A stretch of 47,876 nt of DNA. It comes from a virus. How positions within the stretch are numbered: the stretch's first letter is position 1; every line of letters starts with the position of its first letter. Under the pieces are notes generated by a model. That model saw only the letters and a program-made list of their open reading frames with translations, was not told the origin of the DNA and searched no databases. A program made the translations under genes and the position numbers. Below, in pieces: positions 3,136 to 39,838 of this stretch. The stretch spans positions 1-47,876 of IMG/VR virus record IMGVR_UViG_3300020182_000056; one strand, 5' to 3'.

Positions 3136-3163
3136 GTGTTGTATTCCTAATTAGTTAAATTTA

Positions 3164-3188
3164 TTTATGCGACAATATGCCGCATAAA
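3164..3188 (-). terminator. Hairpin between scaffold and capsid genes
   Basis: TTTATGCG (3164-3171) pairs perfectly with CGCATAAA (3181-3188) around a nine-base loop. It begins just after the stop of the upstream scaffold-like gene and ends about 30 bases before the capsid start. It could be a partial terminator or an RNA-processing/stabilising structure that sets capsid level. There is no strong U-run. Confidence 0.45.
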
Positions 3189-3189
3189 T

Positions 3190-8799: not shown

Positions 8800-9357
8800 T
8801 TACCGTAGAGGTAAATCAAGTTCGCCTTCGTACCAAGTAAGTAAACTGGTTATATCTTGTAATTGTGAATCTAGGGAGGTAAGCCTGAAGAGGTAGACAG
8901 TATTTCTTTTTAATAGCTTCTCCCTACCAACAATAGTACCAGGAGTACCTTTGCCTTGATTAGATGTATTTCCTATTAAATAATCAGGAGCAAATGCTAA
9001 TGTACCTTCAGTAACCAGGTTGGCTCCTACTATAATTTGTGTTAGACCTGTCACAGGGTTTATATCTGAGGCATTCTGATAAGGTACAGAAACCCCATCG
9101 TTGTAGGCTGCACCTGTAAATATCTCAGCTTTTACGCCTGTGCCTGTGTAACCTATTACCCTACCTTTTAACGCTACAGGCAGGTCACCAGTAACAAAGA
9201 AGGTATTATTAACTGCACCACCACCTACGCCTTCAAGCAAGGTTGAGCCTTCATGCTCTATACCAAGCTTTGAATTAGCTTCGGTGTATGATTGGGTTGT
9301 TAACGCTCTTGTTCCTGAAAATACTCCTCTAGGGAATAGTACTCTTATTAAACTCAT
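8800..9357 (-). CDS. Small virion protein, possible head decoration
   Basis: A 185-residue beta-rich protein. The middle (about 60-130: GDLPVALKGRVIGYTGTGVKAEIF) looks like an extended sheet with Gly turns, as in capsid decoration or head-fibre proteins. No enzyme motif is seen. It is the last gene of a group of small virion genes upstream of the portal promoter; the 140-base gap to the portal holds that promoter. Role inferred only from fold impression and neighbourhood. Confidence 0.55.
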   Translation of the reverse strand: MSLIRVLFPRGVFSGTRALTTQSYTEANSKLGIEHEGSTLLEGVGGGAVNNTFFVTGDLPVALKGRVIGYTGTGVKAEIFTGAAYNDGVSVPYQNASDINPVTGLTQIIVGANLVTEGTLAFAPDYLIGNTSNQGKGTPGTIVGREKLLKRNTVYLFRLTSLDSQLQDITSLLTWYEGELDLPLR

Positions 9358-9405
9358 TAATTATACCTTTTAGTAATTTGATTTGGTGTGATGTTTCTGT
9401 ATTTT

Positions 9406-9684
9406 TTAGTCAACACCGGCACATTTAATCTCAATATGGGTGCTTGCATCTGAACCTGAAACGGTTACGTACAACTCAACACCTATACCGTGGTCTACCT
9501 GTAGCTGATCACCACTATAGATAGACCCGTCAATGAAACTCGTATAGCTTCCGTCAGAGTTGCGATATTCGAGATTAGCGGTAGCCGTACTGAAATCTCC
9601 AGAGGCGTACACAGCACTTCTAGCGTTCTTATGCTTATTGTTTATTAAGTAGTTTCCGTCCAGTTTTATTGTTTCTGTTTGCAT
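9406..9684 (-). CDS. Small protein of unknown function, probably virion-associated
   Basis: A 92-residue beta-rich protein (ETIKLDGNYLINNKHKNARS ... DGSYTSFIDGSIYSGD), with an AGGAC ribosome site before ATG 9684. It has no membrane segment and no recognised motif. It sits between two other small late genes on the same strand and is likely another minor structural protein. No function assigned. Confidence 0.55.
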   Translation of the reverse strand: MQTETIKLDGNYLINNKHKNARSAVYASGDFSTATANLEYRNSDGSYTSFIDGSIYSGDQLQVDHGIGVELYVTVSGSDASTHIEIKCAGVD

Positions 9685-27935: not shown

Positions 27936-28060
27936 TGATTAATCTACTGGGATATTCAGTTGGCCTTGAGGTTGTAGTACTTATTGGGGTAGCAACACTT
28001 AGAGTTGTGTACCTGATAGGTCTTTTAATTTATGTAAAATGTAAAACCAGTATAGCTTAG
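27935..28060 (+). CDS. Micro membrane protein (41 residues)
   Basis: GTG 27935 overlaps the previous stop (TAGTG). The product is almost all hydrophobic, with GLEVVVLIGVATLRVVYLIG followed by LLIYV, then a short basic tail. One long or two short membrane helices. Supported by coupling only. Confidence 0.45.
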   Translation: MINLLGYSVGLEVVVLIGVATLRVVYLIGLLIYVKCKTSIA

Positions 28061-28103
28061 GTGTTCTAAGTTATTAATTCAACTTTAAATAAGAGAAAAA
28101 ATT

Positions 28104-28178
28104 ATGAAATTATGTTTAGTAGCAGCAGTAGCGTTAGTTGGTTGTTCTTCAGAAGATGATAACGAAGATGATAAGTAA
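28104..28178 (+). CDS. Micro lipoprotein (24 residues)
   Basis: ATG 28104 follows AAGAG. The whole product is a lipoprotein signal (MKLCLVAAVALVGC, lipobox LVGC, Cys14) and an acidic tail of ten residues (SSEDDNEDDK). After processing, an 11-residue acylated peptide would remain. Ser at +2 predicts outer-membrane sorting by the usual rule. A role in blocking superinfection is possible, as for other phage early lipoproteins, but unproven. Confidence 0.55.
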   Translation: MKLCLVAAVALVGCSSEDDNEDDK

Positions 28179-28196
28179 ATAAATCATTGTAATACC

Positions 28197-28227
28197 GGCT
28201 GTTAAGTACTAACTGAAGCAGCCTTTT
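28197..28227 (+). terminator. Probable terminator
   Basis: GGCTG (28197-28201) pairs with CAGCC (28219-28223), followed by TTTT. Short stem; moderate. Confidence 0.45.
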
Positions 28228-28249
28228 AAACTACTGAAGAGGAAAAATC

Positions 28250-28399
28250 GTGGATAAAGCACAACTTGTAAAGAACTACAAAAAAGCATATTCAAGTGTA
28301 CATGGTACTAAATGTAAAGATTTAGAGCTTCAAGACTGGTCAAACGAAGAGCTAGAAAAAGGTATTAAAACACTAGGCTTTATAGCTGGTAAGAAGTAG
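28250..28399 (+). CDS. Small early helical protein (49 residues)
   Basis: GTG 28250 after AGAGG. Begins MDKAQLVKNYKKAYSSVHGT, with a helical C-terminus (SNEELEKGIKTLGFIAGKK). No family recognised. It lies three bases before the next start. Confidence 0.55.
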   Translation: MDKAQLVKNYKKAYSSVHGTKCKDLELQDWSNEELEKGIKTLGFIAGKK

Positions 28400-28401
28400 T
28401 T

Positions 28402-28596
28402 ATGAAAAAACATAAAATAATAGTAAAAATAGGTAAGCCTGCTAAAAATAAAGCAGCAACACATACATTTAAGAAGTTGTATGGCCAAAAAGAGCCTATA
28501 AAGCCTAAGTGTAGGGTATGTAACAATGGTGTACTTGAACGCCGTCAATGGAACATGCTTAATTGTACAAAATGTCATCACTCAGAGCTTCAATAA
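28402..28596 (+). CDS. Zinc-ribbon protein
   Basis: A 64-residue basic protein with two cysteine pairs, CRVC (about 37-40) and CTKC (about 55-58), separated by a strand-turn-strand (NNGVLERRQWNMLN): a compact zinc ribbon. The N-terminus is Lys-rich. Likely binds nucleic acid or a host polymerase. Possible inhibitor of host transcription, only inferred. Confidence 0.6.
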   Translation: MKKHKIIVKIGKPAKNKAATHTFKKLYGQKEPIKPKCRVCNNGVLERRQWNMLNCTKCHHSELQ

Positions 28597-28605
28597 GGGG
28601 AAGTA

Positions 28606-28806
28606 ATGTTAGATATTCACGGAAACGAAGTAACTAAAGGTGCAGTTATTTACATAATGGATGCCGCAATAGCCGGTTCCAAAAGTAAACGTTTACTGTA
28701 TGGAGAGGTTACTGAAGTAAGTAATGGTAAGTGTAAAGTACTTGTTTATGAAAACCAAAGAACATACAGTAAAACATCTGCAACTGTACTACTACCTAAA
28801 GAGTAG
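28606..28806 (+). CDS. Small SH3-like beta-barrel protein
   Basis: A 66-residue protein: GNEVTKGAVIYIMDAAIAGS, then RLLYGEVTEVSNGKCKVLVY. This strand pattern is that of small SH3-like or KOW-type barrels. It carries no other motif. AGGGG precedes ATG 28606. Confidence 0.55.
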   Translation: MLDIHGNEVTKGAVIYIMDAAIAGSKSKRLLYGEVTEVSNGKCKVLVYENQRTYSKTSATVLLPKE

Positions 28807-28914
28807 CTTTAAGTACATCTCAACACCCCAAAACAGTAAAATCTCACGTACACCAGAGTACACCTAAAACACAATCTCGAACACACAACTTAATTTAAAC
28901 TAAAAGGTAAAATT

Positions 28915-29628
28915 ATGACTACTACTACAAAGAAAACAGCAAAGAAATCAACAACTAAAGCAAACACAGTTAAAATGTCAGCAGCAACTAAAGCACTAAT
29001 GGCTAAAGTTGAAAAAGCTCAGAAAGATAACGCAGCAAAGTTAGCTGAAAAGGTTATGGTGGCCAGTCTTAATGCAACATTGGCACTTGAAAGCAGTGAA
29101 GTGTTATTTGAATCAAAAGTTAAGTTGGCAGTAAGCAGTCAGAACACTGACAAGCTTCAAAGCTTAATAGACATATGTTCAGGTATTATCGATGAAACTC
29201 CTGTACAGAACTCAAAAACTCGTACTCTTCGTGAGTGGGCAGGCAGTAAACGTTTCGCATTCGGTAACCAAATCAACCTTATGTACCAACTAGCTACAGG
29301 TATTATGTACAGCGCTAATGAGCACAAGCAATTGTTGTTAGCGCACACACAGTTGGACATGGAGCTGATAGAACAGCTTGTAGAAGCGTTTGGTTCACCT
29401 GCATACTACTCACGTAACCATAATGCTTTAGTTGATGCTAAGCCCTACAACATTGAAGCAGTTGATTCAGCAGTAGCTGTGATGCAGTCTTCATTAGGTG
29501 TAGTGGTTGACGTTACTAAACTGACAACAGCTAACTTCTCATTAGAGTTCGGTAAAGGTGAAATAAAAGCTCTTGAAGATCAGGCTAAAGCCAGTAAAGC
29601 TATTGCCGAAATGGATACAGAGCTGTAA
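28915..29628 (+). CDS. Conserved early/middle protein (possible N4 gp14 counterpart)
   Basis: A 237-residue protein with a Lys/Thr-rich N-terminus (TTTTKKTAKKSTTKANTV) and a long helical body (about 25-160). TLREWAGSKRFAFGNQINLM and AYYSRNHNALVDAKPYNIEA are the most distinctive strings. It is the largest early gene and is followed by a strong terminator. In N4-like genomes a conserved gene of unknown function (gp14) precedes the RNA polymerase pair; the position suits, but I could not confirm homology. Confidence 0.65.
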   Translation: MTTTTKKTAKKSTTKANTVKMSAATKALMAKVEKAQKDNAAKLAEKVMVASLNATLALESSEVLFESKVKLAVSSQNTDKLQSLIDICSGIIDETPVQNSKTRTLREWAGSKRFAFGNQINLMYQLATGIMYSANEHKQLLLAHTQLDMELIEQLVEAFGSPAYYSRNHNALVDAKPYNIEAVDSAVAVMQSSLGVVVDVTKLTTANFSLEFGKGEIKALEDQAKASKAIAEMDTEL

Positions 29629-29650
29629 TAACAAGCGGTAATTGGATGGT

Positions 29651-29676
29651 GGTCAGTACTCAATGTACTGGCCTTT
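29651..29676 (+). terminator. Terminator after the early block's largest gene
   Basis: GGTCAGTAC (29651-29659) pairs with GTACTGGCC (29665-29673), nine pairs around TCAAT, followed by TTT and a T-rich run. Confidence 0.7.
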
Positions 29677-29700
29677 CACTTTTAAAGGTTGGAGAAAATT

Positions 29701-29892
29701 GTGGATTTTTACACAAAAATGTTCTTAATAAATATTATCTGTTTTCTAACGTTACTGGTAACAGTAAGTATTATTTGGACAGAAGAAGAGATACGTAAGA
29801 TTGAGTGGTTGGCAGTATTAATTGGGTTATGGTTTTTGGTGATGGTGGCTTCAATACCTTCATATTTAATATACATAGTAGTTAATTGGTAG
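29701..29892 (+). CDS. Small two-helix membrane protein
   Basis: A 63-residue protein with hydrophobic helices at about 7-25 (MFLINIICFLTLLVTVSII) and 38-62. I choose GTG 29701, seven bases after GGAG; a TTG at 29689 opens the frame earlier. No family recognised. Confidence 0.55.
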   Translation: MDFYTKMFLINIICFLTLLVTVSIIWTEEEIRKIEWLAVLIGLWFLVMVASIPSYLIYIVVNW

Positions 29893-29904
29893 CAAGGAAA
29901 ACTT

Positions 29905-30066
29905 ATGAAGTTGATGACCAAAAAAGAACGCGATGAAAAGTGTACTTGTGATTATGAAGATGAAAACTTCACTGATTGTGACATTTGCTTGATGTATATA
30001 GACCAATACGCAGAGGAGCATGAAGAAAGAAAGAATAAGAGGATGTTCGAGGCTCAAGAATGGTAG
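29905..30066 (+). CDS. Small acidic Cys-containing protein (53 residues)
   Basis: ATG 29905 follows AAGGA. The product begins MKLMTKKERDEKCTCDYEDE and contains CTC and CDIC, a possible metal site, then a charged helix. It ends at a bidirectional terminator. No family recognised. Confidence 0.55.
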   Translation: MKLMTKKERDEKCTCDYEDENFTDCDICLMYIDQYAEEHEERKNKRMFEAQEW

Positions 30067-30089
30067 TCACCTAAACACTAAGTGACTAC
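30063..30089. terminator. Bidirectional terminator
   Basis: GTAGTCAC (30063-30070) and GTGACTAC (30082-30089) pair perfectly around 11 bases, between the early block (plus) and the homing gene (minus). Confidence 0.6.
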
Positions 30090-30098
30090 ATAAAGAAG

Positions 30099-30764
30099 TT
30101 AAGCCTTAGTCCAACCTTTATGTTGTTTAGCTTTACCTCGTGATACGGCAGACATACAGCCTTGAGTTAGGCCGTTGAGCTTACAAAACTTAGACAAGTT
30201 ACTAAAAGAATGTGAACAGCCTAAAGGGTCTTTAAAAGTATATTGCTTTATATGAGGATCTGCGCGGTTAACTGCCTCTGCAACAAACACACAAAACTCA
30301 GGAGAATAAACTTTGTTACCTTTAACCTTAATGTCTTTATCCAAGTCGAAACTCTCTTCGTAGTTAGCTTCAAACCAATCAGCAAATGTTTGGAAGTTGA
30401 GCCACTCAGGAGAGACAGTACAACATTTATAAGTAGGGTACTTGATGTGGTAGGTATCACAATAACATCTTGTAAGCATATTAAACCATGCAGTATAAGC
30501 TTTAGTACATTTACCAAGTACTTTAGTTTTATGTAACCCTATACCAACATAACCTACACCAACGATGGTAGGAGACATCCTGTCTTTTACGTCACCTTTA
30601 CGAAGGTCGGATGACTGTACTGAAGATGTGGAACCTGTTTCAGTAAACATAATATTTACTGAAAGTGAGTCTATGTATTCAACTACTTTAAAACTGCCAT
30701 AATTTTTAGATTTATATAACTGTAAGGGGTTTTCTAAGAATATAGATTTATTAAATAAGTTCAT
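30099..30764 (-). CDS. HNH/AP2-type homing endonuclease-like protein, paralogue A
   Basis: A 221-residue protein of the homing family found three times in this window. Shared core: AYTAWFNMLTRCYCDTYH (about 88-105), YPTYKCCTVSPEWLNFQTFA, then FDLDKDIKVKGNKVYSPEFC (about 139-158). Its C-terminus has a NUMOD-like helix-turn-helix (FSNLSKFCKLNGLTQGCM) ending in KGWT, like the GIY-YIG gene. It is on the minus strand, against all its neighbours, and has its own upstream element. These features identify a mobile gene; cleavage activity is inferred. Confidence 0.75.
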   Translation of the reverse strand: MNLFNKSIFLENPLQLYKSKNYGSFKVVEYIDSLSVNIMFTETGSTSSVQSSDLRKGDVKDRMSPTIVGVGYVGIGLHKTKVLGKCTKAYTAWFNMLTRCYCDTYHIKYPTYKCCTVSPEWLNFQTFADWFEANYEESFDLDKDIKVKGNKVYSPEFCVFVAEAVNRADPHIKQYTFKDPLGCSHSFSNLSKFCKLNGLTQGCMSAVSRGKAKQHKGWTKA

Positions 30765-30792
30765 AATTACTCTCTAAGTAATGCTCTAAAGG

Positions 30793-30807
30793 AAGTTGTG
30801 ACAACTT
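30793..30807. promoter_or_regulatory. Palindrome AAGTTGT-G-ACAACTT
   Basis: Perfect seven-base arms around one base in the leader shared by the minus-strand homing gene and the plus-strand RNA polymerase gene. Could be an operator. A second palindrome, CCTAGT-C-ACTAGG, lies at 30837-30849. Confidence 0.4.
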
Positions 30808-30822
30808 AGTAGAGTTCTAAGA

Positions 30823-30841
30823 TTTCAGCCGCTAAACCTAG
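30823..30841 (-). promoter_or_regulatory. Element shared with another homing gene (copy 1)
   Basis: Minus strand reads CTAGGTTTAGCGGCTGAAA, identical in 18 of 19 bases to 36532-36550. Both lie 60-80 bases before a gene of the same homing family. TTTAG and CTGAA can form a small stem around CGG. Possibly a promoter recognised by a phage polymerase. Confidence 0.5.
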
Positions 30842-30904
30842 TCACTAGGAAATAGTAGCAGAATATGCAAAAAATGTACACCAACGCTTAATATAAATAA
30901 AGGT

Positions 30905-31672
30905 ATGGATATGACTATGTGCAATGATAAGTATAGAGAAAACTTACTAAGTGGGGAACTCGGTTTTCCCGGAACTAAAATATTTGAGAAATATCCGGAT
31001 AAAGAGAAGGCAATACGTAGATTTTTTAAGGTTTTATTCCTTAATTATTTAAACGAAAACGCTACCAATGCTTTGAAGTGGTATGAAGAGCTTGGTGCCA
31101 AAGTGTATAACGATGTTATTAGAAGACTTAGCCATAATGGTTGGGTAATAAGTAACAGCCTAACAGGGCGTAAATGGGCTGATGCAGAATTGTGTACTGC
31201 CAAACTGTTAGAGTTTGTTACAGAAGAAGAGCTTGAAGAAATTAAAGCTGAATACAAGTACGACAAGTATATATTGAACTGTGAAGCATCTACCAAATCT
31301 ACGGTGGTACGCCAGAACGGTGAGAGTAAGTATACTGGACTAGAACGTAAAGGGTTCATGGCTGCAGGTAATACTCAATTCGGATTTGATACTGAGATGT
31401 TAGCTAAGTATGAAGAAACTGTTGTAAAGAACCTTACAAAGTCCATGGAAAAAGTGCGACATATGCACCCTGAAATGAAAACTACGGACAGTAGCTATGA
31501 CGAAGTGTCTAAAGGTATTTATGAATGGCATATGCGTAATCCTACTGAAGTGTTCACTACTGGAGATAATATAAATGACAGTCGTGGCAGAGCTATATCA
31601 TCTTGCTTAAGTAAGGTGTTCAACCCTATAAGTAACAAAGATGCGCGTGCATGTTTGGTTATATCTTATTAA
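30905..31672 (+). CDS. RNA polymerase II subunit 1 (N4 gp15-like, N-terminal part of a split T7-type polymerase)
   Basis: A 255-residue protein equivalent to the N-terminal part of single-subunit T7-like RNA polymerases. The C-terminal 36 residues show it: GDNINDSRGRAISSCLSKVF followed by NPISNKDARA, corresponding to the DWRGRVY...NPQGND...K segment before the palm in T7 RNA polymerase (Arg-Gly-Arg and Asn-Pro conserved). In N4, RNA polymerase II is made of two polypeptides and reads middle genes; this is the smaller. The catalytic palm lies on the subunit encoded at 31994-33103. ATG 30911 is an alternative start with better spacing to AAAGG. Confidence 0.88.
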   Translation: MDMTMCNDKYRENLLSGELGFPGTKIFEKYPDKEKAIRRFFKVLFLNYLNENATNALKWYEELGAKVYNDVIRRLSHNGWVISNSLTGRKWADAELCTAKLLEFVTEEELEEIKAEYKYDKYILNCEASTKSTVVRQNGESKYTGLERKGFMAAGNTQFGFDTEMLAKYEETVVKNLTKSMEKVRHMHPEMKTTDSSYDEVSKGIYEWHMRNPTEVFTTGDNINDSRGRAISSCLSKVFNPISNKDARACLVISY

Positions 31673-31682
31673 GGAAAAAACT

Positions 31683-31976
31683 ATGAAAGGTATACTATTT
31701 CGAACAACACATACTGCACACTTATGTCTAACCCACGCTGACCACATAGATTTGCGTGATACAGATGATGTGGATAAAGAGTTGTCAGACCATGTTGATA
31801 AGGTGCTGGCACTATTCAAAAGTGATCAAGTAAGTATCGATGAGGGCTTCTGCTGTAATGCGCTTACGGAGATAGGTATAATAGGAAACAAAGCAAGGTG
31901 CGTTCAGGAAGCTGCGGAACTTATAATGAAGTTCGTAGAAGAACATGAAGCATTCCAATCAATTGAAATTAATTAA
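31683..31976 (+). CDS. Small protein between the polymerase subunits
   Basis: A 97-residue protein starting at ATG 31683 after AAGGA. It begins MKGILFRTTHTAHLCLTHAD, is acidic in the middle (DTDDVDKELSDHVDKVL), then helical. No family recognised. It lies in the same operon as both polymerase subunits and could be an accessory factor; equally it could be an unrelated insertion. Confidence 0.6.
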   Translation: MKGILFRTTHTAHLCLTHADHIDLRDTDDVDKELSDHVDKVLALFKSDQVSIDEGFCCNALTEIGIIGNKARCVQEAAELIMKFVEEHEAFQSIEIN

Positions 31977-31993
31977 TTATATAGGACACTATT

Positions 31994-33103
31994 ATGCGTT
32001 CAGAAGTAAATGCAATTATGCTATTCATAGCTGAGTTAACCGGTAGTTTTGAAGCTGGTACAGGTAATCAAGAAGATAAAATTAAGTGTGGTCAACAAGA
32101 CTACATTACTAACAACTTATTAGAGTTGGACTTAACTACTGAAGACGACCGTAAAGACTTACATGAAAACATATGGCTTGAGCGTTTGTATAAAGAGCTT
32201 GATGAATACTTTGCAATTCCTACTGATAAGTTTGCTAGAAATTTAGCGCTAGACTTGGAAGGATATCGTGAAGAAACATACAAATGGTCTGTTCCGTTAG
32301 AGTTGGATGCAAGTTGCAGTTTGATGCAATTTATAGGTGTTCTACTAAATGACAAACGTATGATGGAGATGACTAACGTTATAGGCGATACTTTAGAAGA
32401 TCCTTGGCATTTGGAGGGATTGTCAAGAAAAATGCTTAAGGAGGCTGCTACACCAGCGCTTTACGGAAGCTCCAAGCTGTGTAGCGATCTGTGGAAAAAG
32501 GCAGGTATGAAGTTTACAGACAAAGATGTTGCTACATACAGAAAGGAAATGTCAGAAGGTGCATTTGGCCTAGCAAACATGTTCAAGGACTTTCTAATAA
32601 ACAACTGCAACCCTTCACCTGAAATGCAGATTAAAATTGGTAATGATAATTTCAGTGTTAATTGTAACCGTTTTAGGAACGTAGGAGAGAAGCTAAAAGC
32701 TTATAGCATTTGGGATTCAGTAGATAGACAATACAATATTATACTACATACCGATACCAAGAAAGTTCCTGATTTAGAGCAATTTAGAAGATTTTTTCCT
32801 ACCCTGCTTATTCACAACTTAGATTCGCAGGTAGCTGATATTATTGTGGGTAAAGTAATGGGTAAATATGGTTGGGGTATTAGTCTGCATGATGCTATAA
32901 TATGTGGGCCTCAAGCAGCAGCAGACGCAAGAAAGTGGTATGGCGAGCAACTGAAACTTATACATGAAAACAGAAAAGAAATACTTTCTGAGTTCTTTAA
33001 ATCGATAGGTATCAGCGCACTAGCGGCTAACGAGTGGGAGAATATTAAAAGTAAAGTACACCAATTAGAAAGCGAGCTTATCATAAGTATGCCGTTAAAA
33101 TAG
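31994..33103 (+). CDS. RNA polymerase II subunit 2 (N4 gp16-like, catalytic palm/fingers)
   Basis: A 369-residue catalytic subunit with all T7-type motifs at the right spacing. Motif A: LELDASCSLMQF, Asp105 (T7 Asp537). Motif B: SRKMLKEAATPALYGSS with Arg145, Lys149, Tyr157 and Gly158, spaced as T7 Arg627, Lys631, Tyr639 and Gly640. Motif C: SLHDAII with Asp300 (T7 Asp812). With subunit 1 it forms the phage middle-gene polymerase. From Asp300 on, the C-terminus (70 residues) is probably not native: a diverged second copy of it lies at 33862-34080, after a homing gene. Confidence 0.93.
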   Translation: MRSEVNAIMLFIAELTGSFEAGTGNQEDKIKCGQQDYITNNLLELDLTTEDDRKDLHENIWLERLYKELDEYFAIPTDKFARNLALDLEGYREETYKWSVPLELDASCSLMQFIGVLLNDKRMMEMTNVIGDTLEDPWHLEGLSRKMLKEAATPALYGSSKLCSDLWKKAGMKFTDKDVATYRKEMSEGAFGLANMFKDFLINNCNPSPEMQIKIGNDNFSVNCNRFRNVGEKLKAYSIWDSVDRQYNIILHTDTKKVPDLEQFRRFFPTLLIHNLDSQVADIIVGKVMGKYGWGISLHDAIICGPQAAADARKWYGEQLKLIHENRKEILSEFFKSIGISALAANEWENIKSKVHQLESELIISMPLK

Positions 33104-33113
33104 GATAATAACT

Positions 33114-33863
33114 ATGGGAAGACCATCAGTAACACCTGAAGATATGCAGGTAGGAACAGTACACAAAACTAACGGGTTCGGGGATATGTTCATATCTAGT
33201 TACGTAACCGGTAAAGAGGTGGTTGTAAGGTTTCCTGGGTACACTCACGAAGTAGTAGCCCAAGCAGGATCTATACGCAGAGGGCAAGTAAAAAACTTTA
33301 TGTATCCTGCTTTATGGGGGAAAGGGTTCTTAGGGTTAGGAGATTATAGTAATCTTAAACATAAAAAAGCATACTCTGTATGGAGTGGGGTTGTTGAAAG
33401 GTGCTACTCAGAAAAGTTTCATACCAAACAACCCACATACAAAAAATGTACAATAGCGGCTGAGTGGTTAAACTTTCAGGTGTTTGCAAAATGGTTTTAT
33501 GAGGAAAGTAATTACGAAGATGGATTATACTTAGATAAAGACCTTATAGCCCAAGGGAACAAAGTATACTCTAACAGTACTTGTGTATTCGTATCAAGAG
33601 AGGTCAATAGTACACTAACAGACCACGGAGCAGCTAGAGGGCCTTGGAAACTTGGTGTTACTTACCATAAATCCAAGAAAAGGTTTGGTGCTAACTACAG
33701 CGTGCTAGGTAAGAGAATTCACATAGGTTACTACAAAAATGAGGAGGATGCCCATGAGGACTACAAAAGAGCTAAGTATACATACTTAAAAGAGTTAGCA
33801 GAAAAGCAAACAAATGAAAGTATAAAGCAGGGTTTATTGAATTGGGTAATTCCCGAATACTGA
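33114..33863 (+). CDS. HNH/AP2-type homing endonuclease-like protein, paralogue B
   Basis: A 249-residue member of the same mobile family as 30099-30764 and 36613-37179. Shared core: AYSVWSGVVERCYSEKFH (about 86-103), QPTYKKCTIAAEWLNFQVFA, LYLDKDLIAQGNKVYSNSTC. The C-terminal part carries an AP2-like DNA-binding unit (LGVTYHKSKKRFGANY ... IHIGYYKNEEDAHEDY, about 177-222). It starts 10 bases after the polymerase stop, and its own TGA overlaps the first codon of the displaced polymerase end, so it is inserted exactly at the codon pair His-Asp of motif C. Confidence 0.8.
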   Translation: MGRPSVTPEDMQVGTVHKTNGFGDMFISSYVTGKEVVVRFPGYTHEVVAQAGSIRRGQVKNFMYPALWGKGFLGLGDYSNLKHKKAYSVWSGVVERCYSEKFHTKQPTYKKCTIAAEWLNFQVFAKWFYEESNYEDGLYLDKDLIAQGNKVYSNSTCVFVSREVNSTLTDHGAARGPWKLGVTYHKSKKRFGANYSVLGKRIHIGYYKNEEDAHEDYKRAKYTYLKELAEKQTNESIKQGLLNWVIPEY

Positions 33864-34080
33864 CGCAATTGTATGTTCTCCTGCAGCAGCTGCTGATGTA
33901 AGAGTATGGTATGGTGAAGAATTAGTTAAAGTACATAATAATCGCGAGTCAGTACTTATAGAGTACTTCAAAAGTATTGGCATAAACGGTTTAGCTACTG
34001 AATCTTGGGAAAAGGTAAAAGCTATGGTAGTACCCTTCGAAGGCAATCTTGAAGAAGAATTGAGTATGCCTTTAAAATAA
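33862..34080 (+). pseudogene. Displaced original C-terminus of RNA polymerase subunit 2
   Basis: This 72-codon frame has no start. It reads DAIVCSPAAAADVRVWYGEE then LVKVHNNRES and ends LEEELSMPLK, against DAIICGPQAAADARKWYGEQ and ELIISMPLK in the intact gene: roughly 40 of 70 positions identical, with both ending SMPLK. It begins at the Asp of motif C. It would restore a complete polymerase if joined to codon 299 of the upstream gene. Seen directly; the interpretation as a fragment cut off by the homing gene is inference. Confidence 0.85.
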
Positions 34081-34106
34081 CTAGGCTTTAAAATAACAAA
34101 CAAACG

Positions 34107-34140
34107 GAGACTTTATGTGATAGTTAGCATTTAAAGTCTC
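34107..34140 (+). terminator. Hairpin downstream of the polymerase remnant
   Basis: GAGACTTT (34107-34114) pairs perfectly with AAAGTCTC (34133-34140) around 18 bases, followed by TATTAATTA. Probably the old end of the polymerase transcript or an attenuator. Confidence 0.45.
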
Positions 34141-34183
34141 TATTAATTAGCAAGCAAACTTAAATAGAAAAAGGAAAGATAAA

Positions 34184-34432
34184 ATGGCTGTTGCAAAAAT
34201 GGTTAAAAAGCTAAAGGATAAAGGGATAGTTCCAATTAGCGCAAAGTATGAGAGAGGCTGCCCTGTACCAGAGGGTTACGCTAACGGTTATATATTTACA
34301 TTCAGTGAGGCTCTAGAAGATAGAGTATGGGAAGCAGATAAAAACGTAAGTTTTGAAACAACTATGGAGTTAGATAATTCTAAGGACGTTTTTGAATGGA
34401 TAGAAAGCCTGCCAGATATTACACCAAAATAG
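34184..34432 (+). CDS. Small protein of unknown function
   Basis: An 82-residue protein, ATG 34184 after AAGGAAAG. Begins MAVAKMVKKLKDKGIVPISA, with an acidic C-terminal half. No motif recognised. First of a run of three small middle genes before the DHH enzyme. Confidence 0.6.
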   Translation: MAVAKMVKKLKDKGIVPISAKYERGCPVPEGYANGYIFTFSEALEDRVWEADKNVSFETTMELDNSKDVFEWIESLPDITPK

Positions 34433-34443
34433 GAGCAAGAACA

Positions 34444-34695
34444 GTGAATTCAAATGAAGCGTTTATTTTAATAGGTATATTCGGTCTTGGTTTTTTCTTA
34501 GGTAATGGAGTTTTAGATAAAAAACCAACGCCTTTAGTTATTGACCATATAGTCATACAAAAACCAATTAATACAGATGATTTTTTAACGGTTGACGATT
34601 TAAAAAATATTTATGCTTGCGTAGATACGAAAATAATCAATCAAAATAACAAAGTTAAGTTCCCATGCGTTTCAGTACGTGGTGATTCTTTTTAA
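34444..34695 (+). CDS. Small membrane-anchored protein
   Basis: An 83-residue protein starting at GTG 34444, nine bases after AGGAG. An N-terminal membrane helix (AFILIGIFGLGFFLGNGVL, residues 5-23) is followed by a soluble domain with two cysteines (ACVD, FPCVS). The frame is open earlier, inside the previous gene, but without a ribosome site. Function unknown. Confidence 0.6.
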   Translation: MNSNEAFILIGIFGLGFFLGNGVLDKKPTPLVIDHIVIQKPINTDDFLTVDDLKNIYACVDTKIINQNNKVKFPCVSVRGDSF

Positions 34696-34707
34696 GTAGA
34701 GGTGAGT

Positions 34708-35409
34708 ATGGGTAATCAAGTACCTGATTGGGCTGTCGATGTTAGATACAGACATAAAAGTTTTGTATTTACGGACGGTAAAAGAAAAACTCAGTTTTTA
34801 GACGGCGGTAGATGTGACTCTACAAAAGTTAAAAACTGGGTTGTAGTTCATAAAATCATTAAAAGTAGGCATAGCCGTCTACTCCACACAATTAAACCTA
34901 ACCCTATGGGCAACAACCAAATTAAAAAACGTGCAGCTGAAGAGCACAACAAAAAGCGTAGAGAAGAGCACGTAGAACGAGTTCGAATTGCTCAAGATAA
35001 AATTGATAATCCTGAAAAATACAACCGTAATGGGAGAGGAAGTCGTAAAGGTGTATCAAAAGCTCAAGCAGTCATAACTGCTGCGCTAGCTCTTAGTGCT
35101 GATGGTTTTGACTCAAGACACAGAAAGTCTGCCGCAAGTCCTACTTTTGCTGTGCCTTATGGCAAACAAAAACAAACAGAGCCTAAACTAATCAAAAATT
35201 GGGAAGAGCTGTCTAAAGTAGTAACCTGTTCGAAGGGCTACTACTTGGATATTGTGCCTGAAGACGGTAATGGTTGGATTCGTGATTCAAAAGGTAATCA
35301 TGTGGAGTATATGACTACTCATACGTTTTATAGCAAAAATTATAAGTTCAGCACCAAACTACTTCAGGAACATGGGTTTAATGTTGTACTGGAAAACTGG
35401 GACAAGTAG
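34708..35409 (+). CDS. Basic protein of unknown function
   Basis: A 233-residue protein, ATG 34708 after AGAGG (a GTG at 34702 is possible). N-terminal sheet region with FVFTDGKRKTQFLDGGRCDS, then a strongly charged helix (KKRAAEEHNKKRREEHVERV, about 74-93) and a Gly/Arg linker. It may bind nucleic acid. No family recognised. Confidence 0.6.
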   Translation: MGNQVPDWAVDVRYRHKSFVFTDGKRKTQFLDGGRCDSTKVKNWVVVHKIIKSRHSRLLHTIKPNPMGNNQIKKRAAEEHNKKRREEHVERVRIAQDKIDNPEKYNRNGRGSRKGVSKAQAVITAALALSADGFDSRHRKSAASPTFAVPYGKQKQTEPKLIKNWEELSKVVTCSKGYYLDIVPEDGNGWIRDSKGNHVEYMTTHTFYSKNYKFSTKLLQEHGFNVVLENWDK

Positions 35410-35460
35410 TTATGATTCCGTTCAGTAACATCTAAATTTAAAATAAATTAAGGAAAAATT

Positions 35461-36273
35461 ATGAAAAACTTATGTATCTACCATCGGTCTTGTGCTGATG
35501 GTTTCGGTGCAGCATTAGCTGTAAAACTTCACTTTGAACAACTTGGTGAAGAGTGTGAATATTTGCCTGCACATTATGGAGAAGAGGCCCCAGATGTAAC
35601 AGGCAAGTGTGTAGTTATAGTTGACTTCTCTTACCCAAGAAAAACACTTATTACTATGCAAAAACAAGCAAAAGACATTATTGTACTAGACCACCATAAG
35701 ACTGCAGAAGCTGAACTTAAAGGCTTAGAATTCTGCATATTTGACATGGAACGTTCAGGTGCAATGATGGCTTGGGAACATTTCCATGCTCCTAAGAACA
35801 TACCTATTCTCATTGATTATGTTCAAGACCGTGATTTATGGCAATGGAAACTACCTCATAGCAAGGAAATTTCGTCAGGTTTACAACTACTACCTATGGA
35901 GTTTGCTGCTTGGGAAGAGTACTTTGACACTGCAAAACTACCGGAGCTTATAGCTAAAGGTGAAACTATACTGGCTTACCAGAACCAGCATGTTGAAGCA
36001 GTTGTTAAAAGAGAAGCTAGAATAATCACACTAGCTGGGTTTGCTGTTCCTATAGTAAACACAACTACACTGGTTAGTGAGGTATGTGGCAGGTTGGCGG
36101 AAGACTACCCGTTTGCTGTAACCTACTTCGATACCGATAAAGATCGTGTGTATTCACTAAGAAGCCGTGGTCGTGGTGGTGAAGATGTATCTAAAATTGC
36201 TAAACTATTTGGTGGTGGTGGTCACCCTAAAGCGTCAGGGTTCTCAATACCTCTTAATGATAAACAACTCTAA
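35461..36273 (+). CDS. DHH-family phosphoesterase
   Basis: A 270-residue enzyme of the DHH/DHHA1 superfamily, which includes NrnA/NrnB oligoribonucleases and RecJ. Visible: YHRSCADGFGAAL with Asp13, VIVDFSYP with Asp55, the signature DHH at 77-79, a later Asp in DYVQDRDLW, and the C-terminal DHHA1 motif GGGGHPKASGF. These bind two metal ions and hydrolyse phosphodiester bonds in short nucleic acids. In a phage it may recycle nanoRNA or nucleotides, or degrade nucleotide signals. Complete and well conserved. Confidence 0.85.
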   Translation: MKNLCIYHRSCADGFGAALAVKLHFEQLGEECEYLPAHYGEEAPDVTGKCVVIVDFSYPRKTLITMQKQAKDIIVLDHHKTAEAELKGLEFCIFDMERSGAMMAWEHFHAPKNIPILIDYVQDRDLWQWKLPHSKEISSGLQLLPMEFAAWEEYFDTAKLPELIAKGETILAYQNQHVEAVVKREARIITLAGFAVPIVNTTTLVSEVCGRLAEDYPFAVTYFDTDKDRVYSLRSRGRGGEDVSKIAKLFGGGGHPKASGFSIPLNDKQL

Positions 36274-36289
36274 ACAATAAGGATTAATT

Positions 36290-36478
36290 ATGCATACAGA
36301 TGGCAATAGAAAACCTGTTGTGCCTATGACACATGCACAAATTCGTAAAGCGTTTAAAAAGCTCGATAATGCGAATATTATTAAACAAATAGATGGTAGA
36401 GGTTCAAGTATCAGAGCCAAGAAAGGCAACGTATCTTGTGGCTCATCTTTTAACGAACTAATGAAGGAGTTTAAATAA
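36290..36478 (+). CDS. Small basic protein of unknown function
   Basis: A 62-residue protein, ATG 36290 after AAGGA. It begins MHTDGNRKPVVPMTHAQIRK, then a helix-turn-helix-like stretch (KAFKKLDNANIIKQIDG). No family certain. It is followed by a micro-frame (ATG 36478, six codons) and then the homing gene leader. Confidence 0.5.
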   Translation: MHTDGNRKPVVPMTHAQIRKAFKKLDNANIIKQIDGRGSSIRAKKGNVSCGSSFNELMKEFK

Positions 36479-36531
36479 TGGCTAATCGTAATAGCTAAGA
36501 ATCCAGTATTTGTAGTATAATAGTGTTGTAC

Positions 36532-36550
36532 CTAGGCTTAGCGGCTGAAA
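36532..36550 (+). promoter_or_regulatory. Element shared with another homing gene (copy 2)
   Basis: CTAGGCTTAGCGGCTGAAA, matching 30823-30841 (minus strand) at 18 of 19 bases. It precedes the homing gene at 36613 by 63 bases. A CCCTC/GAGGG hairpin (near 36553-36570) follows. Confidence 0.5.
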
Positions 36551-36612
36551 ACCCTCACCTCAGAGAGGGCTTTGCACAAACTTTTTCTGAGTCACTACAT
36601 GAGGGTAGTAAT

Positions 36613-37179
36613 ATGAATAACTCCGCAAAACCTACGGTATTTGGTGTTGGTATTAATGACGTTAAAGGTGCTTGTAGTACTAAATCTTATAGAACTTGGG
36701 TAGGTATAATTAGACGATGTTACTGTCCAAAATTTCAAATTAAAAACCCAGCCTACGCTAACTGCAAGGTAGATAAAAATTGGCATACATTCTCTAATTT
36801 TAAGAAATGGTATGACGTAAACTATCGTGAAGGTTTTCAGATTGATAAAGATGTTTTTGGTAATAGAGTATACTCAGAATCAGCCTGTGTATTTGTACCT
36901 CAATCTGTTAATTTGTTGTTCACTGACGGAGCAGCAGCACGAGGAAAATGGCCTAAAGGAGTAAGTTTTCTTAAGGTGCCATGCAAATACGGTGCTCACA
37001 TATCCAAAAAAGGCAAAAACACACACATTGGATATTTCGACACACCAGAAGAAGCACGACAAGCTTATTTACCAATCAGAAATGAATACTTAAAAACTAC
37101 ATTACTAGAGCATGTAGGTATGGGGAACATAACTAAAGACTACGCTGATAAGGCTTTTATAAAGTATAAAGAAAAATAA
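36613..37179 (+). CDS. HNH/AP2-type homing endonuclease-like protein, paralogue C
   Basis: A 188-residue member of the mobile family. Shared core: SYRTWVGIIRRCYCPKFQ (about 25-42), NPAYANCKVDKNWHTFSNFK, QIDKDVFGNRVYSESACVFV. The C-terminal AP2-like unit is KGVSFLKVPCKYGAHI ... THIGYFDTPEEARQAY. It lacks the N-terminal barrel-like part of the other two. ATG 36613 is preceded by GAGGG; the frame is open 30 codons further up but within the leader. A strong terminator follows. Confidence 0.75.
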   Translation: MNNSAKPTVFGVGINDVKGACSTKSYRTWVGIIRRCYCPKFQIKNPAYANCKVDKNWHTFSNFKKWYDVNYREGFQIDKDVFGNRVYSESACVFVPQSVNLLFTDGAAARGKWPKGVSFLKVPCKYGAHISKKGKNTHIGYFDTPEEARQAYLPIRNEYLKTTLLEHVGMGNITKDYADKAFIKYKEK

Positions 37180-37187
37180 ATAGAAAT

Positions 37188-37229
37188 AAAGGTCAACTTA
37201 GCTAACGCTAGGTTGGCCTTTATTTTTTT
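37188..37229 (+). terminator. Strong rho-independent terminator
   Basis: A stem of about 15 pairs: AAAGGTCAAC...GTTGGCCTTT extended by TAGC/GCTA around TAAC (37188-37221), then TTATTTTTTT. Ends the homing gene transcript. Confidence 0.9.
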
Positions 37230-37395
37230 GTAGCAAACGCTAGACAAGTCAAACGGCTTAAGAGCAAATAAAAAACATATATTATTATGGGATGTTAGAA
37301 ATATTTAAAAATTCTTTTTTAAGGGATTTTTAGATATTTATTTTTTCTTCTTATTTTTAGTTAAGGAAAGATAGAATATATTTTTTGGAGTTTAT
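37230..37395 (+). other. AT-rich leader of the middle operon
   Basis: No gene. Over 80 percent A and T in the last 120 bases, with long T-runs before GGAG and ATG 37396. N4 RNA polymerase II reads from AT-rich promoters, so this is a candidate site for the phage polymerase. No exact motif can be claimed. Confidence 0.3.
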
Positions 37396-38169
37396 ATGAA
37401 AACGATAATCTACGGTGGTGGGACGATATCCCATGTAAGAAGTCATTTAGCTTTATGTGCTCCTGCTTTTGGAACAACAGCCCGTTACTTAAAACAACAA
37501 CTACCTTTTTCTGATTTACGTCTTACAAGAATGGCTAGTGAGTCAAGCAAACTAATAACTAATGCAGACATTCATAATGATATTGAAAGCATTATTAAAG
37601 ATTCTTTTGTGAAATTTGTAGTAATGAATGCCGCTTTATGTGATTTTGCAGGAAATGTTGAAGGAGCTAATTCAGGACCGCATGCTAAAAGACTTGAAAC
37701 TTCTGATGGTAGTGCGTTAATGGAGTTGTACCCAACATCTAAGCTAATACAGCACCTAAAAGCTAAACGACCTGACATCTTCATTGTTGGGTTTAAAACA
37801 ACTACTGAAGCTTCCTTAGAAACTATGGTTGAAAAGTCCCGTAAAATGGACGTAGATTTGGTAATGGCTAATGATACAGTCACCAGAAAAAACATCCTTT
37901 ACCACAACCTATTTCAGTCAACCATCGAAGGGGAAAGAAAGAATTTACTGGATGCAATAGCCGGGATAGTAAGGGCTAGACAGGGTGATATTTTATACGA
38001 AGACGATAAAAAAGTAATAATTCAGCTTCCCTGTTTTAAAAAATTGTCTTTAATAGAAGCAGAAAAGTTAGCAGTAACACAATATGAAAAAGAAACAGGG
38101 AGAATACTTGTCCCTTCCTCTAAACAGTGGTCATCTAAACAAGACGGGGCAATAATATTAACAAGATAG
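37396..38169 (+). CDS. DNA/pantothenate metabolism flavoprotein-like (CoaB-like) protein
   Basis: A 257-residue protein with a Rossmann-like start (IIYGGGTISHVRSH), then FVVMNAALCDFAG (about 75-87), LMELYPTSKLIQHLKAKRPD (about 112-131), FIVGFKTTTEASLETM and DLVMANDTVTRK (about 155-166). These strings match the CoaB half of CoaBC (phosphopantothenoylcysteine synthetase): the NAAV-D patch, VGFK/AET motif and ANDT-R loop. It could act in CoA synthesis or modify a related substrate. No CoaC half is seen. ATG 37396 has GGAG seven bases upstream. Confidence 0.65.
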   Translation: MKTIIYGGGTISHVRSHLALCAPAFGTTARYLKQQLPFSDLRLTRMASESSKLITNADIHNDIESIIKDSFVKFVVMNAALCDFAGNVEGANSGPHAKRLETSDGSALMELYPTSKLIQHLKAKRPDIFIVGFKTTTEASLETMVEKSRKMDVDLVMANDTVTRKNILYHNLFQSTIEGERKNLLDAIAGIVRARQGDILYEDDKKVIIQLPCFKKLSLIEAEKLAVTQYEKETGRILVPSSKQWSSKQDGAIILTR

Positions 38170-38209
38170 GTTAGAAAGTCCCCCATTTACGAATCACTAG
38201 GGCGGGAGT

Positions 38210-38575
38210 ATGCAGCGTAATATTAAAATACCGGAAATAATTATGACAGTATCTGATAACGAACATGAAATAATTCGTAACCCAAAAGTATATGTAGTCG
38301 GTTATACAGAAGAACAGTTGGTAGAAATTAAAAAAGTACTAAAAGAAAAACGTATCGATTTAGTCACTTGCCAACAAGATGCAGATGCTTCAGTCACTCC
38401 TGACTGGATTATTGGACCTAAACCAGAAATGGTAGCTCCTGATATGGATTTTGCTTCTATTGAAAAAAGAGTTGTATTAGTGAATGAAGCACACCTTTTC
38501 TGTGGTCATCCACTAGCTAATATTGGTTCTGCAATTCCAGAGGTCCAAGACTGTAAAGACACTAGTTTTGATTAG
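38210..38575 (+). CDS. Unknown protein, possible interrupted C-terminus
   Basis: A 121-residue protein. ATG 38210 has a very close GGGAG; ATG 38243 (MTVSDNEHEI) after GGAAATAA is an alternative. It has a Rossmann-like pattern (NPKVYVVGYTEEQLVEIKKV, then DLVTCQQDAD) and ends DTSFD before TAG. Directly after the TAG the same frame reads 21 more codons, strongly basic, up to 38641. No family recognised. Confidence 0.6.
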   Translation: MQRNIKIPEIIMTVSDNEHEIIRNPKVYVVGYTEEQLVEIKKVLKEKRIDLVTCQQDADASVTPDWIIGPKPEMVAPDMDFASIEKRVVLVNEAHLFCGHPLANIGSAIPEVQDCKDTSFD

Positions 38576-38641
38576 GGTAAACAGCACTGGCGCGGCGGTA
38601 AGCGTGGGCGTAAAGGTAAAATTAAATACGAAAGAAGGTAG
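38576..38641 (+). other. In-frame basic extension after the TAG of the previous gene
   Basis: Codons 38576-38638 read GKQHWRGGKRGRKGKIKYER then R before a second TAG (38639-38641). The extension is unusually basic and GC-richer than surrounding non-coding DNA. It may be a readthrough product, a sequence cut off by a recent nonsense change, or chance. Confidence 0.35.
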
Positions 38642-38643
38642 TT

Positions 38644-38817
38644 ATGAATAAGGCATTCAGAACAAGGCAACCAAAGAACTTTAGTTTACCTGGAAGAGTT
38701 TACGGTGTACTAAAAAGAAGAAAAGGTGGTGTAATACTTAGTGTTGTTCGAGTGGATTTATTTGAATGCAATGACTGCGAAGACAACCCTACACACTGCT
38801 ACTGTTTAGCAGCATAA
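38644..38817 (+). CDS. Small Cys-containing protein (57 residues)
   Basis: ATG 38644 follows AGAAGG. Begins MNKAFRTRQPKNFSLPGRVY, and ends with FECNDCEDNPTHCYCLAA, four cysteines in a short stretch (CNDC and CYC) that could bind a metal. Lies between two middle genes. No family recognised. Confidence 0.55.
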   Translation: MNKAFRTRQPKNFSLPGRVYGVLKRRKGGVILSVVRVDLFECNDCEDNPTHCYCLAA

Positions 38818-38836
38818 AATAATTAGGAAAAAAGAA

Positions 38837-39238
38837 ATGAACAAAACAATTAAAACAAAAGTATCTACTGTTACCTGTATTCAGGCAAGTCGTTGTATTG
38901 ATACCGGTAAAAAAATTTTTACACTTGAATGTGAGTATCCTCGTGCTGTTCATGCACAACTACTAACTCATGGTGTCTTTAGTAAAAATTCAAGCTCTAC
39001 TCGTGCAGTTCCACTTGAATCCGCTATTAAACAAATTTTGGAAAACCCTGCCAAAGTTATTTGGACAACTAACCAATCTGGTATGCAAGGTGAAGTTGTT
39101 ACTGATCTTCAACAGTTGGAAGGTGCAAACCGTTTAATGGCTATTGCCAAAAACAACATGATTCAAATAGCTCGTAGCCTTTCAAAACATACACAAACAG
39201 AACGCTGGTCGACTACTAGAACCATTCCAAAATATTAA
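38837..39238 (+). CDS. thyX: Flavin-dependent thymidylate synthase, N-terminal part (frameshifted thyX)
   Basis: 133 residues equal to the first half of phage-type ThyX: YPRAVHAQLLTHGVFSKNSS, STRAVP, and QSGMQGEV. ThyX makes dTMP from dUMP with FAD and NADPH. Two oddities. First, the motif usually reading THRVFSRN is THGVFSKN, losing the Arg next to the active-site His. Second, the frame leaves the family after ARSLS near 39184; one base fewer in the AAAA run at 39184-39187 would give SNIHKQNAGRLLEPFQNIKI and run straight into the next frame. So the gene is broken, or the sequence has an indel. Confidence 0.8.
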   Translation: MNKTIKTKVSTVTCIQASRCIDTGKKIFTLECEYPRAVHAQLLTHGVFSKNSSSTRAVPLESAIKQILENPAKVIWTTNQSGMQGEVVTDLQQLEGANRLMAIAKNNMIQIARSLSKHTQTERWSTTRTIPKY

Positions 39239-39242
39239 AATT

Positions 39243-39779
39243 GTGCTTACAGCTACTGAATGGGAAAACTGGGACTGGTTGCGTATACACGAAGATGCAC
39301 AAGGTGAAATTGCCGATTTAGCCACTGCTATGAAAGAAGCTCGTGATACTGCTGAAATTATGGACCTACAGCCAGGTGAGTGGCACGTTCCTTATGTTGA
39401 ACGTATTTACAATGAATCAGCAGACACTCTTGAATACGGATTAAACGATCCTGAAGAAGGTTTTATATCACTTACTGTTGAAGAAGCTAAAGCTGTCTCT
39501 ATGTCTGTTTGTGCTCAAGTATCTTACCGTAAAGCTGATACTTCTCTTGAAAAAGCAAACAAAATGAAAGGCATGTTAGTTAATGGCCATAAAGTCCATG
39601 CTTCTCCGTTTGAACACCAAGCTACTCCTATTCCTGCCTTTGAATGGAATGCTACAAGTGAATGGCCTGAAGGTGTAACGCACATGCGTAAAGACTACTC
39701 CTTTGGCTCAGGTAACTTTGTAAATTGGATTCAACATCGTCAACTCATTAAAAACCATGATGGTGCCAACTTAACTTAA
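39243..39779 (+). CDS. thyX: Flavin-dependent thymidylate synthase, C-terminal part (frameshifted thyX)
   Basis: 178 residues from a GTG at 39243 without a ribosome site; the frame is actually open from about 39166 and overlaps the N-terminal part. It carries the second half of ThyX: LTATEWENWDWLRIHEDAQ, PGEWHVPYV, VCAQVSYRKAD, HASPFEHQATP and FVNWIQHRQL. All later family landmarks are present and in order, so the break is recent. Alone it would not be functional. Probably one original gene 38837-39779. Confidence 0.8.
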   Translation: MLTATEWENWDWLRIHEDAQGEIADLATAMKEARDTAEIMDLQPGEWHVPYVERIYNESADTLEYGLNDPEEGFISLTVEEAKAVSMSVCAQVSYRKADTSLEKANKMKGMLVNGHKVHASPFEHQATPIPAFEWNATSEWPEGVTHMRKDYSFGSGNFVNWIQHRQLIKNHDGANLT

Positions 39780-39789
39780 TCTTATAAAT

Positions 39790-39818
39790 AGGTGGTTCAT
39801 TCATATGTAGGACCACCT
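39790..39818 (+). terminator. Terminator-like hairpin after thyX
   Basis: AGGTGGT (39790-39796) pairs with ACCACCT (39812-39818) around 15 bases, followed by TTAACT. Weak U-run; may be an attenuator before the large gene. Confidence 0.45.
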
Positions 39819-39838
39819 TTAACTAGTGTGGAGGACAT

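What the first reader, a model, noticed from the sequence alone, without database searches (positions are those of the whole stretch)
32888..34080. Homing cassette that replaces the C-terminus of the phage RNA polymerase exactly at catalytic motif C
RNA polymerase subunit 2 ends with a complete C-terminus (Asp300 to residue 369). Ten bases later comes a homing-type gene, and overlapping that gene's stop is a start-less 72-codon frame that is a second, diverged copy of the same C-terminus (about 55 percent identical by eye, both beginning at motif C Asp and ending SMPLK). The simplest reading is that a cassette, new C-terminus plus homing gene (32891-33861), inserted between the His and Asp codons of motif C; the new end keeps the polymerase alive and carries a recoded, uncuttable site, while the old end was cut off. 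Removing 32891-33861 would restore a perfect polymerase frame. A similar strategy has been described for fungal mitochondrial atp6; I know of no phage RNA polymerase example.
Basis: partly seen in the sequence, partly recalled or inferred. Interest (0 to 1): 0.88.

Follow-up and report, generated by a model that had tools for sequence, protein, structure and literature searches.

The report
Homing gene that swapped polymerase tail
In this bacterial virus a selfish DNA-cutting gene has landed at the catalytic end of the viral RNA polymerase gene, bringing a foreign working tail for the polymerase and leaving the original tail stranded behind it; this arrangement was known from fungal mitochondria, and we found no earlier report of it in a phage.

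Summary
RNAP2 (31994-33103) is complete. A homing-endonuclease gene follows 10 bases later (33114-33863), and overlapping its stop is a start-less second RNAP2 C-terminus (33862-34080), 54% identical to the first. The closest relative found (L015) has an uninterrupted RNAP2 and no homing gene. Trees are discordant: for residues 1-280 the window pairs with L015 (99/99), but for the C-terminus the stranded downstream copy pairs with L015 (98/97). Grouping the upstream copy with L015 is rejected (AU p=0.024).

Corrections: the native remnant begins about 6 codons before Asp300 (Trp294, TTGGG microhomology, 1-nt shift), and the left edge cannot be fixed (identity to L015 falls from codon 281). This looks like one-sided double-strand-break repair, not clean insertion between His and Asp. 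The window shows no intron; relatives carry group I introns in the same gene, one at the same motif C. The anatomy equals fungal mitochondrial atp6-type hybrids; the endonuclease is IPA-HNH/AP2 type. A mirror-image candidate (thyX 5' end) was found in another virus. Cutting and expression are untested.

The parts
30905..31672 (+). RNAP1 (partner subunit of the N4-type heterodimeric RNA polymerase); context and vertical-descent yardstick
   Evidence: 84% aa identical to L015 RNAP1, dN 0.125; phrog_27203; 60% to Alteromonas phage AD45
31994..33103 (+). RNAP2, complete chimeric subunit; motif A Asp105 at 32306-32308, motif C Asp300 at 32891-32893
   Evidence: profile matches N4 RNAP2 (6dt7_B) at motifs A and C; model resembles T7 RNAP; phrog_2051 RNA polymerase
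32834..33103 (+). foreign C-terminal tract of RNAP2 (best supported for 32891-33103; start placed near codon 281, where identity to L015 falls)
33102..33105 (+). Shine-Dalgarno-like AGGA of the homing gene, inside the RNAP2 stop region
   Evidence: sequence
33114..33863 (+). homing endonuclease gene of the IPA-HNH type (N-terminal beta-rich domain, atypical HNH nuclease with LDKD...GN..YS..C..N, C-terminal AP2 at about 33654-33785)
   Evidence: phrog_953 E=4.5e-64; AP2 (below Pfam cut-off; Foldseek prob 1.0); homologous to ICP1 gp209; all 15 family-invariant residues present; model pLDDT 93
33842..33861 (+). right junction: TTGGG microhomology (HEG ...LLNW / RNAP2 Trp294), then native RNAP2 sequence with one inserted base that puts the HEG stop inside native polymerase DNA
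33862..34080 (+). stranded native C-terminus of RNAP2, no start codon, intact 72-codon frame
   Evidence: 75% aa / 76% nt identical to L015; groups with L015 98/97; dN/dS 0.12 against L015

Best explanation
A free-standing homing gene that sits just downstream of RNAP2 in a donor phage cut the RNAP2 gene of this phage's ancestor at or near catalytic motif C during co-infection. Repair was one-sided. On the left, homologous recombination in the polymerase gene copied in the donor's C-terminus, which closes the gene and removes the target. The result is a complete chimeric polymerase gene, the homing gene, and the recipient's own C-terminus left as an untranslated remnant. Shown: duplication, empty site in a relative, native/foreign assignment by discordant trees, intact homing-gene family residues, short homology at the junction, no detectable intron RNA. 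Inferred: cleavage at motif C, resistance of the donor sequence, activity of the chimeric polymerase, and the repair route.
For: Duplicated C-terminus. Uninterrupted RNAP2 without the HEG in L015, and uninterrupted RNAP2 in L009, L016, L017-L020. Discordant trees and AU test; sign test of sites 16 vs 6, p=0.026. Identity of the upstream copy to L015 falls from 88% (residues 241-280) to 52% (281-320), sharply at codon 281. HEG family and intactness. The HEG family's own C-terminus ends about ...(A/G)L(M/L)NW, so the residues VIPEY and the stop of this HEG most likely come from native RNAP2 DNA. The same gene is attacked repeatedly in relatives: group I intron with GIY-YIG ORF at residue 273 in AD45 phages; two group I introns in L013/L022, at motif A and motif C, the latter with an HNH-AP2 ORF and inserted 7 nt after the start of the motif C Asp codon. 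Same anatomy and tree pattern in fungal mtDNA hybrids (PMC3630166). One-sided, microhomology-joined repair is documented for T4 intron homing (PMC2988022).
Against: The tree signal rests on 71 columns (AU p=0.024, not overwhelming). The donor phage was not found. L015 itself has an unusual stretch at 281-297 and elsewhere, so the left edge is uncertain. RNAP2 shows other mosaic-like dips against L015 (codons 71-110, 141-200). Cleavage, specificity and expression are untested. No read coverage was available, so a chimeric assembly is not formally excluded.
Confidence: 0.84

Rival explanations
1. The homing gene hitch-hiked: recombination between two related phages replaced the RNAP2 3' end by ordinary illegitimate exchange, and the homing gene, which now sits at the breakpoint, did not cut here.
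For: HEGs mark boundaries of phage exchange in general (PMC10448857); RNAP2 is mosaic elsewhere.
Against: The breakpoint falls at a catalytic motif that carries an intron in a relative and coincides with the HEG's 3' end, which is what target-site cutting predicts.
Confidence: 0.09
2. A degenerate mobile group I intron: an intron with this ORF once lay at motif C, as in L013, and RNA parts were lost while a new C-terminus was acquired.
For: A group I intron with an HNH-AP2 ORF sits at almost the same site in L013/L022; in AD45 and L013 the ORF also abuts the 3' exon.
Against: No intron RNA at E up to 5 in 28000-40000. The ORFs are of different HNH subfamilies: L013's matches Pfam HNH_3, the window's does not. 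The 3' exon edge does not match the L013 splice site.
Confidence: 0.05
3. The downstream copy is still used: splicing or +1 frameshifting at the HEG stop (TAC TGA C, native frame +1) makes a product with the native C-terminus, giving a switchable polymerase end.
For: Frame intact, dN/dS 0.12 against L015; TGA-C followed by the +1 frame resembles the prfB geometry (general knowledge); N4-type RNAP is already assembled from two chains (general knowledge).
Against: No intron, no start codon, no SD-like element next to the stop; the fusion would carry the C-terminus on an endonuclease. A recent displacement explains the intact frame equally well.
Confidence: 0.04
4. Assembly chimera of two co-occurring phages.
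For: No read data to check the contig; another record in this set (L017/L018) carries two RNAP2 copies at its two ends.
Against: Joins at a 5-base microhomology are far shorter than assembly overlaps (general knowledge); the junction is biologically placed; flanking genes on both sides match the same relative L015 in order.
Confidence: 0.04

Closest known systems
Fungal mitochondrial gene hybrids (atp6 of Allomyces macrogynus; atp6, atp9, cox2, nad3 of Glomus sp.; PMC3630166)
   Same: Foreign in-frame C-terminus + endonuclease ORF + displaced native C-terminus; native copy clusters with close relatives, inserted copy does not
   Different: LAGLIDADG or GIY-YIG enzymes in mitochondria; there transcripts were tested and the hybrid shown expressed; here an HNH/AP2 enzyme in a phage, at a polymerase catalytic motif, nothing tested
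IPA-HNH homing endonucleases of phages (ICP1 gp59, gp209; PMC10448857)
   Same: Homologous nuclease with C-terminal AP2 domain; free-standing next to an essential gene
   Different: No end replacement was found by searching that paper for duplicated or truncated gene ends; this copy also has an N-terminal beta-rich domain
Phi-PA3 gp210 intron endonuclease in an RNA polymerase gene (PMC11620839)
   Same: HNH enzyme aimed at a conserved Asp-bearing site of a phage RNA polymerase gene
   Different: Group I intron in a multisubunit-type polymerase; here no intron, T7/N4-type polymerase, end replacement instead of splicing
Group I introns in RNAP2 of AD45 phages and of L013/L022 (found here)
   Same: Same gene; L013 intron sits at the same motif C; its ORF is also HNH plus AP2
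   Different: They match the group I intron model; the window element does not, and repairs the gene with its own exon
Free-standing seg/mob endonucleases of T4 and one-sided intron homing (PMC2988022)
   Same: Cut a neighbouring gene, co-convert flanks; microhomology junctions when homology is one-sided
   Different: No stranded gene end with complete replacement end was seen in the passages read

Membership tests
End-replacing homing element (fungal mt atp6 type) | complete host gene with in-frame foreign C-terminus | tested here: met
End-replacing homing element (fungal mt atp6 type) | endonuclease ORF directly downstream | tested here: met
End-replacing homing element (fungal mt atp6 type) | displaced native C-terminus without a start, clustering with close relatives | tested here: met
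   98/97 support
End-replacing homing element (fungal mt atp6 type) | element-free allele in a close relative | tested here: met
   L015
End-replacing homing element (fungal mt atp6 type) | hybrid transcript expressed; enzyme cuts the empty site | not testable with these tools
   needs RT-PCR and cleavage assay
IPA-HNH homing endonuclease | homology to ICP1 gp209 | tested here: met
   hhalign prob 99.9, E 1.8e-31
IPA-HNH homing endonuclease | C-terminal AP2 domain | tested here: met
   Pfam AP2 E 1.8e-4 but under the curated cut-off; Foldseek AP2 prob 1.0, E 0.16
IPA-HNH homing endonuclease | sequence-specific cleavage of an empty target | not testable with these tools
   biochemistry needed
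Group I intron | catalytic RNA core in the inserted DNA | tested here: not met
   no RF00028 match at E up to 5; relatives match at 1e-11 to 1e-18
Intein | Hint/intein splicing domain in the inserted frame | tested here: not met
   no intein family among Pfam matches of RNAP2 or the HEG; the HEG is a separate frame
N4-type RNAP2 | motif A and motif C Asp of a T7-like polymerase | tested here: met

The most novel reading that the evidence does not exclude
Intron-less homing genes of phages form a class that carries a replacement gene end for its target, at either end: a 3' version here (RNAP2) and a mirror-image 5' version in L079, where a 35-codon thyX start fragment lies before the homing gene and a complete thyX with a different start lies after it. 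This would be a route by which essential phage genes become chimeric without introns or inteins.
Probability: 0.4. Interest if true: 0.72.

Novelty: new variant of a known kind. Interest (0 to 1): 0.64.

Why it matters
It would be the first phage case known to us of a homing gene that swaps in a gene end instead of hiding in an intron or intein. It freezes what looks like a single repair event in sequence (left by homology, right by microhomology) and gives a natural test of how a free-standing endonuclease comes to sit at nearly the same site that an intron occupies in a relative. It also suggests that the catalytic motif of an essential polymerase can be exchanged between phages in one step. 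All claims of cutting are directly testable.

Tried and rejected
Splicing: Rfam at relaxed threshold found no intron in the window. Intein: no such domain. Donor hunt: a DNA pattern for both HDAI(I/V)C-type C-termini found only the L015 contig in viral contigs. Single-protein scans with RNAP2 and with the HEG found nothing; motif C and alignment-based scans did. Genome contigs gave no relative. Clustering of unusual residues of the upstream copy near motif C (P297S, S305G; 2 of 5 violations of 130 invariant columns) was considered as proof of a recoded site and rejected as not significant alone. Search of 91 HEG contexts for duplicated gene ends: one strong (L079), one weak (L031, 13 aa); the other top-ranked pairs look like repeats or chance. 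The structure search did not place the nuclease domain.

Full report
OBSERVATION. The window is an unnamed 47,876-base virus record whose nearest named relatives are Alteromonas phages vB_AmaP_AD45-P1 to P4. RNAP2 runs from 31994 to 33103. It carries the T7-like motif A Asp105 and motif C Asp300 of N4 RNAP2 (profile match to 6dt7_B at both motifs; predicted model matches T7 RNA polymerase, although its mean pLDDT is only 74.5). A 249-aa homing-type ORF follows at 33114-33863. A second RNAP2 C-terminus, 72 codons, lies at 33862-34080 and is 54% identical to the first (E=1.5e-20; 6e-23). It has no usable start codon.

WHICH COPY IS NATIVE. DNA-pattern and alignment scans of IMG/VR found relatives. 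The closest is L015: RNAP1 84% and the short ORF between the two subunits 68% identical, with an uninterrupted RNAP2 and no homing gene after it. Over residues 1-280 the window's RNAP2 pairs with L015 (99/99). Over residues 300-369 it is the stranded downstream copy that pairs with L015 (98/97; 75% identity), while the upstream copy, 60% identical to L015, stays outside; forcing it with L015 costs 11 log units (AU p=0.024). Site counts agree: 16 positions favour L015=down, 6 favour L015=up (p=0.026). The downstream copy has diverged from L015 at about the rate of RNAP1 (dN 0.155 vs 0.125; dN/dS 0.12 vs 0.13), as expected of a vertically inherited end that was displaced recently. The upstream copy is therefore taken to be the foreign one.

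BOUNDARIES. On the right, DNA homology of the native remnant extends upstream to TTGGG at 33842, the Trp294 codon, with one inserted base before Asp300; such a match is expected in 0.5-0.8% of random window 20-mers or shuffles. Homologous endonucleases end in about (A/G)L(M/L)NW, so the last residues and the stop of this ORF most likely come from polymerase DNA. The join is thus at a short microhomology shared by the two genes. On the left, identity to L015 drops sharply at codon 281, but L015 is itself unusual from 281 to 297, so the crossover can only be placed somewhere upstream of Asp300.

THE HOMING GENE. It matches phrog_953 (E=4.5e-64) and is homologous to ICP1 gp209 (hhalign 99.9%, E=1.8e-31), one of the proteins on which the IPA-HNH class was defined (PMC10448857). 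It keeps all 15 invariant residues of a 38-member alignment. The model is confident (pLDDT 93) with a C-terminal AP2 fold; the nuclease domain found no solved match.

A HOT SPOT. AD45 phages, annotated only as hypothetical proteins, carry a group I intron with a GIY-YIG ORF at RNAP2 residue 273. The L013/L022 virus carries two group I introns, one in motif A and one in motif C; the latter holds an HNH_3-AP2 ORF and is inserted after GAT GCG T of the motif C codons. The window itself has no intron signal. Conserved polymerase motifs thus draw several different homing enzymes, and the intron-less window element sits at nearly the same spot as an intron in a relative.

MECHANISM. Best reading: cut at or near motif C; left end repaired by homology with co-conversion of the donor's C-terminus; right end closed by microhomology to the recipient's broken end. 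One-sided, microhomology-joined homing is documented for T4 (PMC2988022). Shown here: anatomy, empty site, native/foreign assignment, junction. Inferred: cutting, resistance of the donor end, recency.

COMPARISON. The anatomy and tree pattern are those of fungal mitochondrial hybrids (PMC3630166). A phage RNA polymerase cut by an intron-borne HNH enzyme is known (PMC11620839). Paper searches returned no phage case of end replacement. Among 91 contexts of related homing genes, L079 shows a mirror image in thyX: a 35-codon start fragment, the homing gene, then complete thyX with another start (56% identical over 34 aa). Which of the two thyX starts is native was not settled. L031 shows a weak third candidate.

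LIMITS. Small number of C-terminal columns, no donor found, no read coverage, no biochemistry.

Noticed in passing
L079:2837-4585: Mirror-image candidate: 35-codon thyX start fragment, then an IPA-HNH-type homing gene (2953-3648), then complete thyX with a different start; breakpoint just before the conserved TH(R/G)xFSxN motif.
   Followed up: partly
L022:8242-8540 and 9172-9433 (L013:247-508): Two group I introns in one RNAP2 gene, one in catalytic motif A and one in motif C.
   Followed up: partly
L003:4799-5053, L004:6799-7053, L006:6799-7053: Unannotated group I intron with GIY-YIG ORF splitting RNAP2 of Alteromonas AD45 phages at residue 273; the exons are annotated as separate hypothetical proteins.
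   Followed up: partly
window 33856-33866: HEG stop context TAC TGA C with the native polymerase frame at +1, the geometry of prfB frameshifting, but without a Shine-Dalgarno-like element.
   Followed up: no
window 30099-30764 (-) and 36523-37179 (+): Two further homing genes of the same family flank the region; neither is accompanied by a duplicated gene end.
   Followed up: partly
L017 and L018 (same contig, 94313-95425 and 584-1693): One 95.8-kb record carries RNAP2 at both ends, different at the N-terminus and identical in the C-terminal part; strain mixture or terminal-repeat assembly artefact.
   Followed up: no
L031:2760-2796 and 3840-3881: Short C-terminal tail (SQNPVGFLISIKRIS / SNPIGFLVSIERITN) repeated on both sides of a small gene plus homing gene; weak further candidate for a replaced end.
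   Followed up: partly
L026:800-4709 and L027:1324-4749: Close annotated HEG relatives lie between a 'putative exodeoxyribonuclease' and a short 'DNA polymerase II' gene, possibly the two parts of a split polymerase gene.
   Followed up: no
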